In this document: positions 46,883 through 57,246 of the stretch, piece by piece
Layout: each line of letters opens with the position of its first letter
How positions within the stretch are numbered: the stretch's first letter is position 1
Source: Pilatotrama ljubarskyi
Taxonomy: Eukaryota; Basidiomycota; Agaricomycetes; Polyporales; Polyporaceae
Direction: 5' to 3'
NCBI GenBank assembly: GCA_022385805.1
Contig: MU277670.1
Coordinates: 281,875 to 345,874 of the forward strand
DNA: 64,000 nucleotides
The notes under the pieces: generated by a model
Told to the model about the DNA's origin: nothing
Seen by the model: the letters and a program-made list of their open reading frames with translations, nothing else
The model's database searches: none
Program-made: the position numbers and the translations under genes

Positions 46883-49800
46883 ATGTCAGGCTCACACACG
46901 CAACAAGACCACGACGTTCAACGTTCTCCAAGATCTTCTCGCCACGGCCGCGACATGAGAAGAGAAGAGTCAGGTTCACGTAGCCGGTACGACGTGGAGG
47001 ACCGGTGGAGGATGCCAGACACGCCCGAACGCTACATGTATGACCGCAGAGACGAGCAGCCACGGGGAGGAGACTCGCGTGATTCACGAGAGGGAGATGG
47101 ATGGTCGAGGCATGGACACAACGACGTACGGGATTCCCCTTCTGCTCGACAGCGGCTGCAGGGCCGTGAACATAGCCATTCAACCCACTCTCGACAGGAC
47201 TCTGCCGGTTGGGCACCTACGCATCGTCACGATGACCGAGCTGGCGGCTACGGCCGAGAAAGTCGCTCGGGCCAGCACAGCGGCGGCTCACGCCATGAGA
47301 AAGACTCGAGAGAGGACCGTAGGGAGGGTGCGCCTCGGGAATGGCAGAGAGATAATGGTTGGGAGTCTCGCAAGGGCTCTTCGGCCTCGCACGCTTGGGA
47401 CGACCCTCCCCGACAGTGGTCCTCTGGTCCCGGTGAGACATCCAATCGCGAAGACCGGTCTTGGGAGCCGTCCGCTTCATGGCAGCCTGGTCGCAAGGAC
47501 AACGGCTCGCATTCGAACCAACGGAGCCAGAACCACAATCACAAGAACAAGAACAAGGGCAAGGGAGGTAAGAAGAATGGGAGCCACAACAGCAATAAGC
47601 AAAAGCGCAACTGGCGCGACGACGACAGCCAACTGAACAAGTTCGTCCATATTTCTATCCTCGATACTGCGTTGTTGACGTTCAATACAGTTGGACTCGT
47701 CGGGACACGTCTTCATCCAAGAATCCCCCGCCGTCAACAGGAAAACGTCGTCAGCGCCGTTCGCCATCGCCTGGGCGCTCTCGCTCCCCTGCAGAATCAT
47801 ACTACTCTCGTCGGTCATATCGGAGTCGGTCTCGTTCGCTGGATACCCCGAAGCGCCGCCGACGTGACGACAGTCCTCGTGGACGCAGTCCAAGCTACTC
47901 TGATAGACATCGCGGTCGAGACTCACGGCGTGACGCACGGTACTCCCGTTCGCCACCTTCAAGCATCAGCAGTCGAGGGCGGGGCAGGCGAAGGAGTTTG
48001 TCTTCAGTCTCGAGCTATAGCAGGAGCAGGTCTCGGAGCCCTACCCAAAGTCCTGGCGAACGTCCAAGAGCCAAGCATCGACTACCTCCGGCGACCAGCA
48101 TCAGGGATATCCCATTACCAAAGGGTGGGACATTCCGCAATGGTCAAAATCGCAACCGGAAAGGAGGTAATAAGAACGCCAATGGGAAGCTCTCTGAAGT
48201 GCGTTTTGACGATTCTGAAGTGGCCGACCAACTCACCTTTGAGCGACAGCTCTTCCCGGGACTCCCTGAGCGCCCAAGTACCTCCGCCTCGAAGTCAATG
48301 CCGCCTCCTAAGCTACCTGCAACGCGTCGGAAGTCCCCGTCACCGTCAGGAGGGTTGCGGCAAAGCACCACTACGACAGCCTCCGGCTCCAGTGTGGGCA
48401 AGAAACCGGGATTCAAGCCGATAGGGCAAGCAAGTAGCTCGCTCAAGAGGTTCTTCCCAGGCGATGACGAGGAGGATACGCCTCCGCCTCCTACCCACCG
48501 GTCTCGACAACGTCCTCCGACTCCACAGCCTGATTCTCCCGAACTACAAACGACTCGCCTCAGTGGAGACAGCTCCCCAAGTCGTGCTACATCTCCACAT
48601 GGTCGACGGTCTTCGGCTGATCATGAAGGGAGCCCTCATCGGTCGCCAGGATCCGGCAAGAATGACTCATCCGGGGCTCGCTCGCGTGCGAGTGGCAAGG
48701 CTCGTCGCAGGAATGTAGCGCAGACGCCTTCGCACGTCGGCAACCAGGAGAAGCTATACGTTGTACTTGGTCAGGTTGGCTCTGGGACCTTTGGCAAGGT
48801 ATTCAAGGCGAGCAATACAGCCAACGGGCGCATGGTCGCCTTGAAGCTTATCAGGATGGAGTCGGAGAAGGACGGTTTCCCTGTGACGGCTATGCGGGAA
48901 GTAAAGCTCTTGCAGTCGTTGCGGCATGAGAACGTCGTCCAGTTGTACGAGATGTTAGTCTCGAAAGGTGCGATGGTGTTGTCTGTACAGTCTTGATTGG
49001 TTTGCTAATCCCAGCTCAAGGCTCTGTGTACATGGTATTCGAGTACATGGATCACGACCTCACTGGTGTTTTGTCCCAAACCCAGTTTGAGTTCACGGAG
49101 GCGCATTTGAAGTCGTTCTGCCGACAGATGCTTGCTGGGCTCGCGTACCTTCACCACAAAGGCGTCATCCACCGCGACATCAAGGGGTCAAACATCTTGG
49201 TCAACAACCGTGGGGAGTTGAAGCTCGCGGACTTCGGTCTGGCGCGCTTCTACCAGAAGCGTCGCAAGAGCGATTACACCAACCGTGTAATTACCCAGTG
49301 GTACCGACCGCCAGAGCTACTTCTTGGGGCGACCGTGTATGGACCGGAAGTCGACATGTGGAGCGCAGGGTATGCTTTATGCCGCGTCTCCTGGCTCAGG
49401 TCGACTGATACTGCTTCAGGTGCATCATGCTCGAGCTCTTCACCAAGAAGCCTGTCTTCCAGGGTGCAGACGAGATCCATCAAGTCCAGGTCGTGTACAA
49501 GATCATGGGTACTCCCTCGGTCGAAGAGTGGCCAGGGATCGCCAGCCTACCGTGGTACGAGCTGCTCAGGCCCCCCGAAGTCATACCCAATCGTTTCAGG
49601 GAGCTCTTCAAGAAGTAGGGTTGAATTAGTCCGATAATGCGCCATATTCTGACATTCCCACATCTCAGGTGGCTCACCCCGGCGGGTCTGGATCTCGCTG
49701 AGAGACTCCTCACATACAACCCTGAGCGTCGTATCACGGCCCTGCAAGCGCTTGAGGCGCCGTACTTCAACCAGGAGCAGCCGCCAGCTGCGGCCCCAGT

Positions 49801-49952: not shown

Positions 49953-50074
49953 CCCTTCCGATCATGCGTTGTGCTCAGGATGCTATTGTATTGTCGTACA
50001 CATTGTACACTCCCCGCATGGACTGCTATCGGCCACCGCTGACAGGAGTACATCTCGTATATTGTAGAGCGCTA

Positions 50075-51641
50075 TCATGCCTGTACTGCTCCGAATGATA
50101 CCAGTCCCTTCTCCGTGAGGTGCTGGACAATGGTTTCCACCTGCAAAAAGGGTCAGACTCTGACGACGAGGAACGATACTGCATGCTCACATTCGCTGCT
50201 GTCAAGCGGATCTGCATGTCCCATCGCTTTGTGAAGGGAGCACCGGTATCCTCCTCAACCTGTTCTACATCCCCGAGACCACCGGCCTTGCCCTGCGCAT
50301 CATCGTCCTCACCCAGGACCTCAAACGAGATCAACTTCTCCACCTGGTCAATCGTACCCTTCAGGCGGCCCTGCTCAATCATCCTGCGCGCCATCGTCTC
50401 AGCTGCGCCCGGTGTAAGGTCAAGCAGCGCGCCCAGCCCGCGGAATGTGATGTTGTTGTAGATCTTGGAGCTCGCGAGGAGGTTGTGCTCCATCACTGCA
50501 CGATCGAGGACAGTTGACGGACCCTTGCGCGTGCTGATGGTCGGATCGCTCAGCTGGTCGTCCTCCGCAACAGCGGACGCGAGACGGTCGTTGGAAGAGA
50601 TGGAGATCTTGGCGAGCTGGTGCGGCTTCAGTGTGCCCTCGAACTCCTTGATCTCGTCCGGGCGGAGGATGCGATCGTGGAACATCTTAAGTAGGATATT
50701 GAAGTGCGGGAGCTCGGAGGTTCGCTCATCACGGCACAGGGAGGCGAGGACGCGTGAGCGGTTGGGCCCGGCGGGAGCGAGGATCGCGCAGGTCATTGCT
50801 GCAGAGCTGCAACCGGATGCCGTCAATGTGTATGTAGCGGGGATACCCGTACGGTACATACAGCATATGTTTACGCTCCTCTTCGTCAATCTCGGTGACC
50901 CAGCTGAGTTCGTGATATCGACTGGCGGCCTCGAGGAACTTTCGGCTGTAATCACTGATACGGGCCTGGCAAAGTTTGAATTGTAGTAGTGTCTCCTTGT
51001 CCGTTGTACTGTGTGCGAGCAACGCTGCACGATTGTAGTATCGTTCGGCTTCTACTGAGTCCTCGTCCTCGAGCAAGAGTCGCACTATCCGGACGTATAC
51101 CCGCAGCTTATCTTCATCAGGAAGCGACCTGGACACAGGTGAGGCTTGCGCATATGAGGGCATGCAGTGTGATCTCACCTCTGGCCGGAGTCGAGCGAGA
51201 TGCCCATGAGCACCCGAGCAGCGTCGCTCCATTGTTCTTGCTCCTCCAGGATATCGGCTAGTTGGAATCGTAGTGAGTTGACCTGAATACGCAATCCTCA
51301 GCGCCACATTATCCTAGGATCGCGCGTGTGGCACTGACCTGCTCCTCGTAGCTCACGATGCGCGGCTGCACGATGCTCAATGTGTCCTCGACGATGCGTT
51401 GTCTTTGTTCAGGATCTTTAATTCTGCCTTCGGACAGCGCTTTGACGAGTTCGGACAAGACGCCTCTGCTTATGACGAGGCCCACGCTCTCCTGGTTGAC
51501 CACATTGTCGATGAGGGCATGGATATCGCCGACGACGTTGGATTGGTCTTCGCGCGATAGTACTTCGGAGAGGACGGATTGGTAGGCCGTGGCCTTGTCC
51601 TTCTGGTTCAGAGATGCAAACTGAGCGAGTCTGGCCTCCAT
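50075..51641 (-). CDS. CSN4: COP9 signalosome subunit 4
   Basis: PCI-domain subunit of the COP9 signalosome, which removes Nedd8 from cullins. Exons join as MEARLAQFASLNQKDKATAY, VISRGVLSELVKALSEGRIK, VNSLRFQLADILEEQEQW, SLPDEDKLRVYVRIVRLLLE and CQARISDYSRKFLEAASRYH. Then comes MTCAILAPAGPNRSRVLASL, the CSN4 hallmark, followed by LPHFNILLKMFHDRILRPDE, VLDRAVMEHNLLASSKIYNN and ITFRGLGALLDLTPGAAETM (PCI winged helix). The last intron joins AAN to VETIVQHLTEKGLVSFGAVQ, ending A and TGA at 50075-50077. TRIPLE-G-like insert DDDAQGKAGGLGDVEQVE is acidic and probably disordered. About 440 residues. Four to five introns. Confidence 0.93.
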
Positions 51642-52215: not shown

Positions 52216-55200
52216 ATGTCACACTTGACGGCACCAATGCCCACCGGGCACCGTGTGCCCAAGTCTTATCTATTCGACTTCCCTCGTCCTGCGCACCCCC
52301 TCACCCCTCCAGACACGGACTACGAAACGCAATCCCATCAGGCTGCACCTCTGCAGGCTATGGCTGGACTGGAGACGGAGCCATTTCCGCCTCAGCAACT
52401 CCCCTCAGTCACCGACTCTCCGTATGCGAGCCTACACAGGAAGCGCTCCTCGGTCACTTACGTGAACTCGGGTCTCCGTGAATCACGAGAGCGGGTCGTC
52501 CAGAGAGGCCTCAGATGGCTGGTGGTTGTCCTTCCGCCTGTCTCTTTCACAAGGGAGCACGGACATCTAGGCCACACCCTCTCGTCTGGTCCGACGCGCC
52601 GTCTGTCCAACGGCATTCTCATGCCGCTGTATCCAACGGTGAGTCGTTACTGTTGCCGCGCTGAACGATATACTGAGTGCGCATTACTATGCATAGCTCA
52701 ACAGCCAACTTGGCGCAATTGCGCGGGAGTTCAGCTTCCCAAGCATATCCGGCATCTGTGTGTACTTACACACGACTCACGGCGGTCTCTCCCTCAGTCC
52801 GCGTGTCTCCGACGAGTCCTGGCCGCTCCTTTGGGGACACCTGTTCGACGCCCGCTCGCCATCGTTACCTCCCCAGCAGCTGCCTATCAGTGGCCAGATA
52901 GAGTTCGACATTGATTTGTCGAAAGCGCGCTGGTATGACGCCTGGCTGGGATCCTCCCGCCGCGACTACGTCGACGTCCCTCAGTCTGTCACGCCATCGC
53001 GCGCCCAGTCCGTCTCTCATTGGCGTGGAGACAGTCAGACGTCCATCAACGAGCCTCTGGACGATCAGACGGACGCCATCTCTGTCGTCCAGCTTGCCAA
53101 GACTAATGGACGCAACATCAGGAAGCTCTCGCTCTTGGACCGTTTCGACGGCGCGTCAGTGCGGTCGGGCTCGAAGCTGGTGCCGCGGGACGAGTCTCCT
53201 CCCAGCCAGACTGCCAGGCAGGGCGGCGGACTTCAGGCGCTCTCACCTATAGTGCAAGAGGATGAACCCGCCACCGCAAAGAAGGCCATCGACAGTCGGG
53301 TCCAATCATGGCGCATGAGCGCGACCGCAGCCGCGCGTAGCCCCCTTGCTGCCACCGGACAGACCAGCCTTGACCCTGTGAACATGCCCAACACTATGGC
53401 TGACCTTCCGACTGCCAGTACATCCGAGGTGCAGTCGGAGCTCAATCTGGACGATTATGCTTGGTCCGTCTCTTCCGTAGGCCCTCCGGAATACGACCTC
53501 GAGTCGGTCGCGTCTTGGGACCGCGTCCTCTCGGTACATATGGATAGACGGGGTGAAGGCTCAGTCTGTCTCACGCCTTCCATCTGCACATCGTTCGGGC
53601 CTGATGACGAGTATGATCCGTCCTCCCCGATCTCGTACATGTCGCGCCTTCCCTCTCCCGACCTTGCCTTGCGTATGCTCGAGGATGTACCGCCGACCCC
53701 GACTACCGCTACTAGCTGGGGTGCGCCGCTCTCCTACCCGCCCTCCCCGCTCCTGTCGCCCTATGCGCCGTCTGTCGATATCGCAGGGCGGTGCTTGTCC
53801 AGCAGGCCAGCGACGCCCTCGACCGCAACGTCGTGGGGCGCCCCATCGTCCTTCCCGCCGTCTCCCATGATGCCCTATCGTGCGCCCTCACCCGACCTGG
53901 GTGAGCGGGGAATGTCGAGTGTCCCGAACTCTCCGATGTTCCGCCGCCGTGCGCTTCCTTCTACGCAGCCGTACGAGCTCGTCTATCCCTACTACGATGC
54001 AGCGAGGGCCTCGTCATGGCAGCACGTTTGGCCGTATGCGGAAGAGACTCATGCCGCTCAGGCGCAAGTGGCAGAGCAGAGGGAAGCCCTGAGGATGCAG
54101 GGCTTCGTGTTCCCGCCGCCTGCTGGTGTCCATGCTAAGGCAGAGCCGTGGAGGCAAGTGTGGCCCTATGCGGCTTCTTCCGCGGACTCAGGAGAACGAG
54201 TTGTCGAGGCTGCTCGTACGACACTCGGCTACCCGGTCATGGATATCTATCCCGCGGTTTATCCCTCGCTCGACATCTACCCGGCTCTTCTCACCTTGGA
54301 CGACCGGAAACTAGGGGCCCGGGCCGTCAGCTCTGGCGCGGCTTACCCTATTTTCGATCTATGTAGGTGTACTTGGGATGACGACGTACTCAATTTCTGA
54401 CGTGACCCTTTCTTCCAGACCCGGCAGTTTACCCAGCTTTCGACATCTATCCTGCTGCTCTCACCATTGCGGGTGCCGAGACTAAGGAGGTTTCCGCGCG
54501 GCTTTCGACTCCTTATCCCATTGTCGAGCCTTGTACGTGTCCCCTTCGCTCTCCGTGTTTCGATTGAGGAGTAACCACGGCTTCCTAGACCCTCCTGCCT
54601 ACCCGCATCTCACCATCTACCCTGCGGTATCTCACAAATCTCACGGCATATCTACCTCGGTCGTTGCCAGGCAAAGCAAATCGACACCCAGCATATCGGT
54701 TCGCCTGCGCTCGGAATACCCAGTCTTCAATATCTGTGAGTACTCTCGTCCAAATCCTTGCGCAGTTTCCTGATGTTCTATCCAAAGATCCTGCTGTGTA
54801 TCCCCACTGCTTTGACGAGATCTACCCTGCCATTCAAGCTGCTGCTACTGCGCGGCCGTCCCAAGGTATCGATGTTCGGCTCAACACGTCATACCCCACG
54901 TTCGTTATATGTGCGCGTTCATATGCTTCCGTCGTGGGCGTTCTGGCTTACGGTTTCGTGTCTACAGATCCGTCGGTCTACCCCTACAGCCTGGAGTGTC
55001 TCTACCCTTCGGTTGTCGCATGGCAGGGGTCGGAGCCTCTGTCTTCTTTCGTGTCAGTGGGTGTGCGGTCGCAATACCCGGTCTTTGACATATGTAAGGA
55101 GGACCATCAGGTTGCTCGCGGAGACGTGCTCAAGCCCTGCCTTGACAGATCCCGCTCTCTCTGAGATTGGAGGAGACGCTGTTGTCAGAGGAGTTCCCGT

Positions 55201-57246
55201 AAAGCTGCCCAGGGCGTACCCCGTCCTCGACATTTGTAGGTTCTTCTTGGTAAAGTGCCAACCTCCGAAGTCCTCACATGCCCTATAGACCCGGCCGTAT
55301 ACCCTTGGAATTTGCAGGAAATGTACCCCGCTGTCCCGGCTGCTCGACAGCGTGACCGCAGCGGCATCGTAGTGAAGCTCGCGCCCGCATACCCCGTCTT
55401 CGACATTTGTAAGGACTTCAGTAACCGTCCTTCCTATCCGCTACTCAACCCCGTTTTGTCGGTAGACCCTGCGGTGTACCCTCACAGCTTGTTGTATGTG
55501 TATCCGGCTCTACCCTCGTCCTCTGGCATGCAGATCCGTGCTGTCTCTCCCAGCATCGCTAAGCCGTACCTGAGCCTGAGACCATCTGTGAGGCCTACCC
55601 ACTTGCGCAAATCTTCACTGAAACGCGAACTCCCGCCCGTCCCGCCGCTTCCCAAGAATGCTCGCGAACTGACGCCGTTCTCGCCTGTTTCTCGACGACC
55701 GCTCCCCCTAGGCCGCGTGGAAGCTACCGTTCCTGTGCGACTCAACGCGGCGTACCCGAACGTCTGCCCCTGTAAGTCGGCCCCTGCCTCTGTCTCGACT
55801 TGCACTAATCACTGTGTAGACCCTCCGGTGTATCCCCACTTCGCTATCTATCCCGACGCGTCATCGGGAGACCTGTCAACGGTTGAGGTCGAGCTCAGCG
55901 GCAAGGTCCCCGCGGTGTCACAATATCCGTACCTCGTTATATGTGAGTTTCGCGCGGTGAGACGTGACGGATGCCTACTAACAGCATGCCTACAGACCCG
56001 GCGGCCTATCCATACATCGAAATCTACCCCGGATCGTGGGGAGGTTCCTTCGCTGTGCAGATTGCATCGAACCGGACGGCCGCTCGCCGACGGCCGAAGT
56101 ACACGCACATGGAGCTGCGTTCGCAAGTGCTTGCCCCCGCTAAGGCACCCTTGCCTGCGCCTGCGCTGCTTCCCGCTCGCAAGCCGCCGACTTTCTCCCA
56201 TATGCAGCTCCGTGAGCAAGTCCTCGCCACGGAGCGGGCTACGAGGGAACGTCAGCTGCCAAAGGTCATCATCGCCCACTCCAGCCCGGCCACGCCAGAG
56301 CTCTTTTCTCCCCCAGAGCCAGAGTTTGAGTTCGTCACTCCCACTGTGCGTTCAGCCGGACCCGCCTCCAGAGCACCATTCTCGCCACCAGAACCCGAGT
56401 TCGAGATCGTCGCTGTTCCCGCACCCACGCCTGTGTCTGCCGCCCCCCGCATGCAGTCTGTTCCTCCCGTCCCGTCCCGCAGCCGCTCTGGCACTGTCAA
56501 CTCACGACCACCTGTGCCTCCACCCCCGCGCCCAGTGGGTGCCCGTGCGTCCATCCTGGTGAACACAACTCCCGCGCCGTCACCGGATGCTCTCCATGCG
56601 CCGTCACAGTCCGCTCCTCATGCTCCGTCACCGTCGCGGTCGATTAACCGTCTCTCCGGTCTGCCACCCCATCCTGCGGCCAACCGGCGCATGTCCGCTG
56701 CTGCGCCCGCACCGCGGCCTATGTCGACCTTCGGGCCGCTGCCTGCAGTGCCTGAGCCTTCCCCGGGCCCCTCTCCTATTGCCCGGCGGCAGAGGTCGAT
56801 GATGAGCCCTCTGGAAGAGGAGGGGTCTTCCCCGATCCACCGCTCCCCTCAGCACCCGTCACCTTCGGAGGACTGGCAGAGGAGCTACAGGACCCCGAGT
56901 GACACGTCGCCCACTTCACGCCTGTCAATGGCGGGCAGCCCGGCGAGCCTCAGCCGGTCAAATACCATGCCTACGCGTGCAGCTCCTCGCGGTCCCAGGG
57001 GCAGCACTCTCATATCCGAGAGGGCAAGACTGTTCAATGCCTCTGGCGGTAATGGTGAGCTTTGCGTACGTGCCCTTCAGCGCGAATAGCAACTGACTAG
57101 AACGGCCCGCAGGAGAAGCTGAGTCGCCTACGAAACTGATGTCAACCCTGGCTGAGTTCCCTATTCCGCCTCGCCCCTCTCTGCCGTCGAGCCCGGCGCG
57201 GCCAGTGGTCTCGAAACTTGACCGATCAAAATATCCGTTTGCCTGA
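52216..57246 (+). CDS. Unrecognised 1475-residue protein with exon-encoded YP-repeat array
   Basis: I recognise no family. Twelve exons: 52216-52638, 52697-54362, 54419-54532, 54589-54735, 54788-54910, 54968-55093, 55149-55235, 55289-55408, 55466-55771, 55820-55942, 55996-57054, 57113-57246. Residues about 90-235 form a globular-looking part (RGLRWLVVVLPPVSFTREHG, SISGICVYLHTTHGGLSLSP, PISGQIEFDIDLSKARWYDA). A disordered Ser/Pro region follows. Then a tandem array of roughly ten units starts YPAVYPxxxIYPA and ends VxVxLxxxYPVFDI. Nine successive introns (54363 to 55995) are all phase 1 and split the first Tyr codon of a unit. The C-terminal 350 residues are Pro/Ser-rich with duplicated HMxLRxQVLA and FSPPEPEFE motifs. 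No signal peptide or membrane span seen, so probably intracellular. The frame is exact through every join, which argues for a working gene. Confidence 0.85.
53689..53919 (+). repeat. Diverged tandem duplication, TSWGAP units
   Basis: Within exon 2 of the YP-repeat gene, TPTTATSWGAPLSYPPSPLL is followed about 40 residues later by TPSTATSWGAPSSFPPSPMM, with the flanks (PYAPS / PYRAPS) also alike. The two copies are a direct duplication of about 120 bp. Confidence 0.75.
54247..56035 (+). repeat. YP-repeat array, one unit per exon
   Basis: Units begin at 54247 (inside exon 2, no intron before it) and at exon starts 54419, 54589, 54788, 54968, 55149 (degenerate), 55289, 55466, 55820 and 55996. 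The first two full units are both 38 residues. Exon sizes 114, 147, 123, 126, 87, 120, 306 and 123 bp are all multiples of three. The 55149 unit has lost the YPAVYP...IYP half and keeps only VPVKLPRAYPVLDI. The 306-bp exon holds a Pro-rich insert between the two halves. Confidence 0.85.

What the first reader, a model, noticed from the sequence alone, without database searches (positions are those of the whole stretch)
52216..57246. Protein built by exon duplication: nine phase-1 introns each splitting the same tyrosine of a YP repeat
Seen directly: from 54363 to 55995 every intron falls after the first base of a Tyr codon (T / AC or AT) that begins a YPAVYP-like motif. Every exon between them is a multiple of three (114, 147, 123, 126, 87, 120, 306, 123 bp). 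Each exon encodes one unit: YP[APS]VYPxxx[IVL]YPA at the front and [VI]xVxLxxxYPVFDI at the back. This is a clean symmetric-exon array, as in collagen or titin-like genes, but in a compact fungal genome and in a protein I cannot assign to any family. Inference: the array grew by unequal exchange between introns and may still vary in copy number.
Basis: partly seen in the sequence, partly recalled or inferred. Interest (0 to 1): 0.88.

Follow-up and report, generated by a model that had tools for sequence, protein, structure and literature searches.

The report
Fungal protein grown by exon duplication
A bracket fungus carries a gene whose protein contains a chain of similar segments, most of them on their own small exon and joined to the next inside the same tyrosine; signs of the same layout appear in other mushroom-forming fungi, so it is a real and old case of a protein growing by copying exons, although what the protein does is not yet known.

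The parts
52216..57246 (+). whole coding span, 12 exons, 1475 aa
   Evidence: spliced model equals P0002 = BV20DRAFT_1117191
52468..52993 (+). N-terminal domain (aa about 85-240), interrupted by intron 52639-52696; predicted ubiquitin-like fold
52639..52696 (+). intron 1, phase 0, not part of the array
54230..56030 (+). YP array: ten cores YPxF[DN][IL]-Y-P-x-V-YP
54230..54362 (+). first core and unit 1, inside exon 2, no intron in its core
54363..54418 (+). array intron 1, phase 1, splits Tyr
54419..54532 (+). array exon, 114 nt
54533..54588 (+). array intron 2, phase 1, splits Tyr
54589..54735 (+). array exon, 147 nt
54736..54787 (+). array intron 3, phase 1, splits Tyr
54788..54910 (+). array exon, 123 nt
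54911..54967 (+). array intron 4, phase 1, 57 nt, stop-free in frame
54968..55093 (+). array exon, 126 nt
55094..55148 (+). array intron 5, phase 1, splits Tyr
55149..55235 (+). array exon, 87 nt, front motif degenerate
55236..55288 (+). array intron 6, phase 1, splits Tyr
55289..55408 (+). array exon, 120 nt
55409..55465 (+). array intron 7, phase 1, 57 nt, stop-free in frame
55466..55771 (+). array exon, 306 nt, with an insert of about 60 residues
55772..55819 (+). array intron 8, phase 1, 48 nt, stop-free in frame
55820..55942 (+). array exon, 123 nt
55943..55995 (+). array intron 9, phase 1, splits Tyr
57055..57112 (+). last intron, phase 1, not part of the array; other splice choices also keep the frame
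   Evidence: choice fixed by identity with P0002
57211..57246 (+). C-terminal tail SKLDRSKYPFA and stop, conserved
   Evidence: 32 of 150 full-length hits end in a close variant; Exidia P0137 ends the same way

Best explanation
This is an unnamed Agaricomycete protein, single-copy in this genome: an N-terminal, probably ubiquitin-like domain, a long Ser/Pro-rich stretch, and a tandem array of Tyr-Pro cores in a probably disordered region. The array grew by tandem duplication of an exon together with its neighbouring intron, starting from a gene with one core whose junction Tyr codon was split by a phase-1 intron. Because the intron lies inside the core, each exon starts with the second half and ends with the first half of the motif; any two exons spliced together rebuild a complete core in frame, so gain, loss or skipping of exons leaves intact motifs. 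Shown: the intron register here, its recurrence in relatives, similar introns within two relatives' genes, copy number differing among relatives. Inferred: intron present in the one-core ancestor; loss of the first-core intron in the window's lineage; function as a multivalent scaffold in which each core is a docking site.
For: Nine same-register phase-1 introns. In relatives, an unspliced T|GT...AG|AY intron must read Cys...Asp; of 117 short metagenome ORFs 113 have the Cys, 107 the Asp, 104 both; acceptor side Asp 140, intact Tyr 5; of 168 Cys sites 106 are followed by Glu or Lys, as GTGAG/GTAAG donors require. Gene models of Trametes coccinea, Rhodofomes, Amylocystis, two Suillus and Favolaschia retain such stretches. 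Intron translations within Suillus discolor P0062 (three) and within the ORF P0162 (two) resemble each other more than all 738 pairs of a hand-picked background; against all 2272 between-sequence pairs only 4 to 10 reach them, several of which look like the same intron in close relatives. Where the most similar unit pair reaches 60% identity, it is adjacent in 34 of 57 proteins, 12.4 expected. One core in Sporobolomyces P0141 and P0143. Array pLDDT of P0107 30-52 in blocks.
Against: The window's nine introns keep no similarity beyond what they share with the gene's two other introns (mean score -3.08 vs -3.42; 2 of 200 shuffles reach it), so co-duplication is not visible here. Two other ORFs with two introns, P0156 and P0169, show no similarity, and two of the three P0062 stretches are only the 3' parts of introns. 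P0076, apparently unspliced DNA, has about seven cores in one exon, so the array can grow or persist without introns. The metagenome query itself contained retained introns, which favours intron-bearing hits. No DNA of the one-core relatives was available. That other fungi split the first core rests on a VWPY motif before it (P0207, P0227, P0269), and P0160 has VWPY inside the array. Low pLDDT may reflect poor alignment of repeats. No functional data.
Confidence: 0.72

Rival explanations
1. The repeat was already there and introns were gained later, each at the same site in each core, because the core DNA is a preferred insertion (proto-splice) site.
For: Repeats offer the same local sequence ten times; P0076 shows a mostly intronless array; the window's introns are not alike, nor are those of P0156 and P0169.
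Against: Introns within P0062 and within P0162 resemble each other; the register recurs in gene models from several orders and in metagenome ORFs; few intronless cores there (Asp 140, Tyr 5, biased query).
Confidence: 0.14
2. Each core is a pair of YPX3[IL] motifs that bind the V domain of Bro1/PalA-type ESCRT adaptors, so the array is a multivalent landing strip in endosomal or pH signalling.
For: Of 1142 cores picked by motif, 90% have Ile or Leu at the fifth place after Tyr; 14 such motifs lie in the window's array; ALIX binds YPX3L (PMC4907476, passages) and PalA YPXL/I (Vincent 2003, title seen in a reference list); the genome has two loci matching the binding domain PF13949.
Against: Short motif; Ile/Leu could serve something else; no binding test possible; the core goes on with further YP, unlike known ligands as I recall them.
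Confidence: 0.15
3. The YP array is a low-complexity aromatic sticker region for condensation or a structural fibre, with no specific partner.
For: Low pLDDT; Pro 14.7% and Tyr 9.6% in the array; spacers vary freely (unit length IQR 39-73 aa).
Against: The core is more conserved than stickers should need (judgement).
Confidence: 0.35
4. Artefact of gene prediction.
For: No RNA-seq in hand.
Against: Of 15 unnamed records checked, 14 show no sign of unspliced junctions, e.g. P0058 with 8 intact junctions and only 351 nt outside its ORF, too little for eight introns; the junctions recur across species.
Confidence: 0.01

Closest known systems
[quoted passage not shown]
   Same: tandem symmetric exons, one intron phase, a junction amino acid shared by two exons, growth attributed to unequal crossing over
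   Different: LRR fold, many genes, exact 90-bp exons, phase 2; here one gene, 87-306 nt exons, phase 1, a YP motif without a family
Collagen genes (PMC4838654, passages)
   Same: symmetric exon array made by exon duplication
   Different: triple-helix repeat; exon lengths tied to Gly-X-Y and phase 0 as I recall
Titin PEVK exons (recalled; the listing showed no title on their exon phases)
   Same: many small in-frame exons coding for disordered repeats
   Different: animal muscle spring; no shared sequence known to me
YPXnL/I ligands of ALIX/PalA
   Same: Tyr-Pro followed by Ile/Leu at a fixed distance
   Different: known ligands carry few copies (recalled); binding untested here
Ubiquitin-like (beta-grasp) domains: ubiquitin, PB1, RBD/RA
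   Same: predicted topology of the N-terminal domain

Membership tests
symmetric exon arrays by tandem exon duplication | consecutive exons of 3n length with equal phase on both sides | tested here: met
   eight exons, all phase 1-1
symmetric exon arrays by tandem exon duplication | exons code for homologous units | tested here: met
   shared core and layout; one exon has a degenerate front
symmetric exon arrays by tandem exon duplication | introns copied with the exons | tested here: inconclusive
   seen within P0062 and P0162, not within P0156 and P0169; no trace in the window
symmetric exon arrays by tandem exon duplication | copy number differs among orthologues | tested here: met
   junction counts by genus from annotated proteins, gene-model errors possible
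any Pfam-A or NCBIfam family | profile match | tested here: not met
   0 families for the window protein at E<=1; six of seven relatives 0 Pfam families at E<=0.1, the seventh only for a fused enzyme
ubiquitin-like (beta-grasp) superfamily | fold match | tested here: inconclusive
ALIX/PalA YPXnL ligands | YPX(1-3)[LI] motif | tested here: met
ALIX/PalA YPXnL ligands | binding to a V domain | not testable with these tools
   no complex prediction or assay
introner-type mobile introns | near-identical introns within the gene | tested here: not met
   array introns dissimilar; the 5-kb span matches only itself in the genome, a search that skips common words

The most novel reading that the evidence does not exclude
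The intron inside the motif is itself the device: a self-completing cassette in which each splice event rebuilds one binding core, so Agaricomycetes can tune the number of docking sites, by exon gain and loss over evolution and possibly by exon skipping or in-frame intron retention within a cell, on a scaffold that engages a Bro1/PalA-type adaptor.
Probability: 0.1. Interest if true: 0.8.

Novelty: new member of a known kind. Interest (0 to 1): 0.55.

Why it matters
It gives a compact-genome fungal case of protein growth by exon duplication, with one-core relatives, old stable arrays and recent duplicates available for comparison, so the mechanism and tempo of exon-array growth can be tested across a class. 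It also marks a conserved, unnamed Agaricomycete protein family for functional work. The Cys/Asp signature lets unspliced metagenome ORFs be used to map introns where no genome is at hand.

Tried and rejected
Tandem Repeats Finder reported no array (only a 24-nt repeat at 56574-56633): the units are too diverged at DNA level. Residual similarity of the window's introns: none beyond the gene's other introns. Paralogous arrays in the genome: none found; only a weak copy of the N-terminal domain on C2. Sequence search of solved structures with the family profile: no hit at E<=1. Literature searches for this array or for fungal symmetric-exon arrays listed no paper whose title or abstract start describes it; some lists were capped (15 of 17, 8 of 10, 8 of 10), subscription journals and preprints are not held, and beyond listings I saw only passages of PMC2171039, PMC6564038, PMC4838654 and PMC4907476. 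Intron positions in relatives' genomic DNA and within-species copy number could not be fetched. A beta-propeller of the units was considered and set aside because spacers vary widely and the model is disordered there; that model is weak for repeats, and the array was not folded alone. Rows dropped: the background was hand-picked (39 introns of 36 sources, two of them window introns); one search repeats it with all 68 introns of 63 sources, and after it I lowered the main reading from 0.75 to 0.72 and raised the late-gain rival from 0.12 to 0.14. Unit comparisons used only units of 28-60 aa. Genus counts left out some short or partial records.

Full report
Observation. The gene runs from 52216 to 57246 on the + strand. 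Enumerating splice sites gives introns at 52639-52696, then 54363-54418, 54533-54588, 54736-54787, 54911-54967, 55094-55148, 55236-55288, 55409-55465, 55772-55819, 55943-55995, and last 57055-57112. The nine in the middle all fall after the first base of a TAC or TAT codon; the eight exons between them are 114, 147, 123, 126, 87, 120, 306 and 123 nt. The 1475-aa product is identical to a deposited Pilatotrama ljubarskyi protein (Polyporales), BV20DRAFT_1117191. Additions: there are ten cores, and the first, inside exon 2, is not split; one exon has lost its front motif; one has a long insert.

Family. The protein has no Pfam or NCBIfam match. The array region found 227 proteins including itself at E<=1e-3, of which the best 120 were listed; the named ones are Agaricomycetes as far as I know the names (only two names were looked up). 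The N-terminal domain found 92. Of the 120 array hits, itself included, 119 have the N-terminal domain (the exception, P0043, is a partial record). Outside Agaricomycetes the domain occurs in Sporobolomyces and Microbotryum; the two Sporobolomyces proteins have one core by the motif count, Microbotryum P0148 none, and P0148 looks closer to the paralogue without cores (by eye). The genome has one array gene and one weak paralogue of the domain alone.

Introns in relatives without their DNA. An unspliced T|GT..AG|AY intron must read Cys at the donor and Asp at the acceptor. Annotated models of several named fungi retain such stretches (P0006, P0043, P0062, P0070, P0090, P0113). A search with nine such translations returned 117 short ORFs at E<=1; 113 carry the Cys, 107 the Asp, 104 both. 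Of 168 Cys sites, 60 are followed by Glu and 46 by Lys, as expected for GTGAG and GTAAG donors. Sixty-seven introns were spanned completely in 63 of 126 sequences (two introns are the window's own); 63 of the 67 are 48-63 nt, necessarily multiples of three. The query favoured such hits, so the ratio Asp 140 to Tyr 5 is an upper view. Against: P0076 looks like unspliced DNA with about seven cores in one exon.

Copying of exon with intron. In Suillus discolor P0062 three retained stretches, and in P0162 two introns, are more alike in translation than any of 738 pairs of a hand-picked background. Against all 2272 between-sequence pairs, 4 to 10 pairs reach them, and several of those look like the same intron in close relatives. 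The other two ORFs with two introns, P0156 and P0169, show no likeness. The window's introns are no more alike than with the gene's other introns. Of the window gene's eight units, six lay within the length limits; all six match best to another species' unit, four of them to the same position in T. cingulata. In the Trametes clade 3 of 74 units match best within their own protein, against 135 of 733 overall. Elsewhere duplication is recent: 31 of 132 proteins have neighbouring units at least 70% identical, T. versicolor among them with 84%. In ORFs P0207 and P0227, and by a donor in P0269, the core that follows a VWPY motif is split by an intron; if that is the first core, the unsplit first core here is a loss. 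P0160 has VWPY inside the array, so this is only suggestive.

Function. The core has Ile or Leu at the fifth place after Tyr in 90% of 1142 cores. YPX3L is bound by ALIX (PMC4907476, passages), YPXL/I by PalA (title of a reference in PMC2171039), and the genome has two loci for the binding domain. This is a lead. The general reading, a disordered scaffold with repeated docking sites, is inference.

Known kinds. Tetrahymena LRR genes show the same principle with phase-2 introns and a junction residue (PMC6564038, passages); collagen is the classic case (PMC4838654, passages). So the kind is known; this family and its Tyr-splitting, motif-dividing intron were not seen described in the listings.

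Noticed in passing
54911-54967, 55409-55465, 55772-55819: Three of the nine array introns are multiples of three without an in-frame stop, so retention would add 16-19 residues without a frameshift; about 1.3 such introns would be expected by a rough estimate of mine.
   Followed up: no
window protein aa 241-652 and 1101-1200: Other repeated short motifs: PWxxVWPY, PSPDxxxRM..PTPxTATSWG, and THMELRxQV after the array; VWPY-like in 112 and TATSWG-like in 65 of 150 full-length hits.
   Followed up: partly
L010 (G000:C2:1100000-1104500), minus strand: A paralogue with the same N-terminal domain (39-40% identity) and no YP core seen in the open frames printed; similar to P0144 and P0148 by eye.
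   Followed up: partly
P0141 and P0143 (Sporobolomyces): The one-core relatives carry a PF01182 domain (6-phosphogluconolactonase family) in two species; fusion or merged gene model (searches place it at the C-terminus of P0141).
   Followed up: no
P0137 (Exidia) and P0095 (Sphaerobolus): Different secondary repeat units: a 'SGYPFTxGVYPA' unit in Exidia, a 'YPDFxGLYPEDP' module between cores in Sphaerobolus.
   Followed up: no
48993-49637 (+) and 50026-51307 (-): Upstream neighbours: a protein kinase (CDK type by eye) and a PCI / PSMD12-CSN4 protein.
   Followed up: partly
56574-56633: A 24-nt tandem repeat, 2.5 copies, in the Pro/Ser-rich tail.
   Followed up: no
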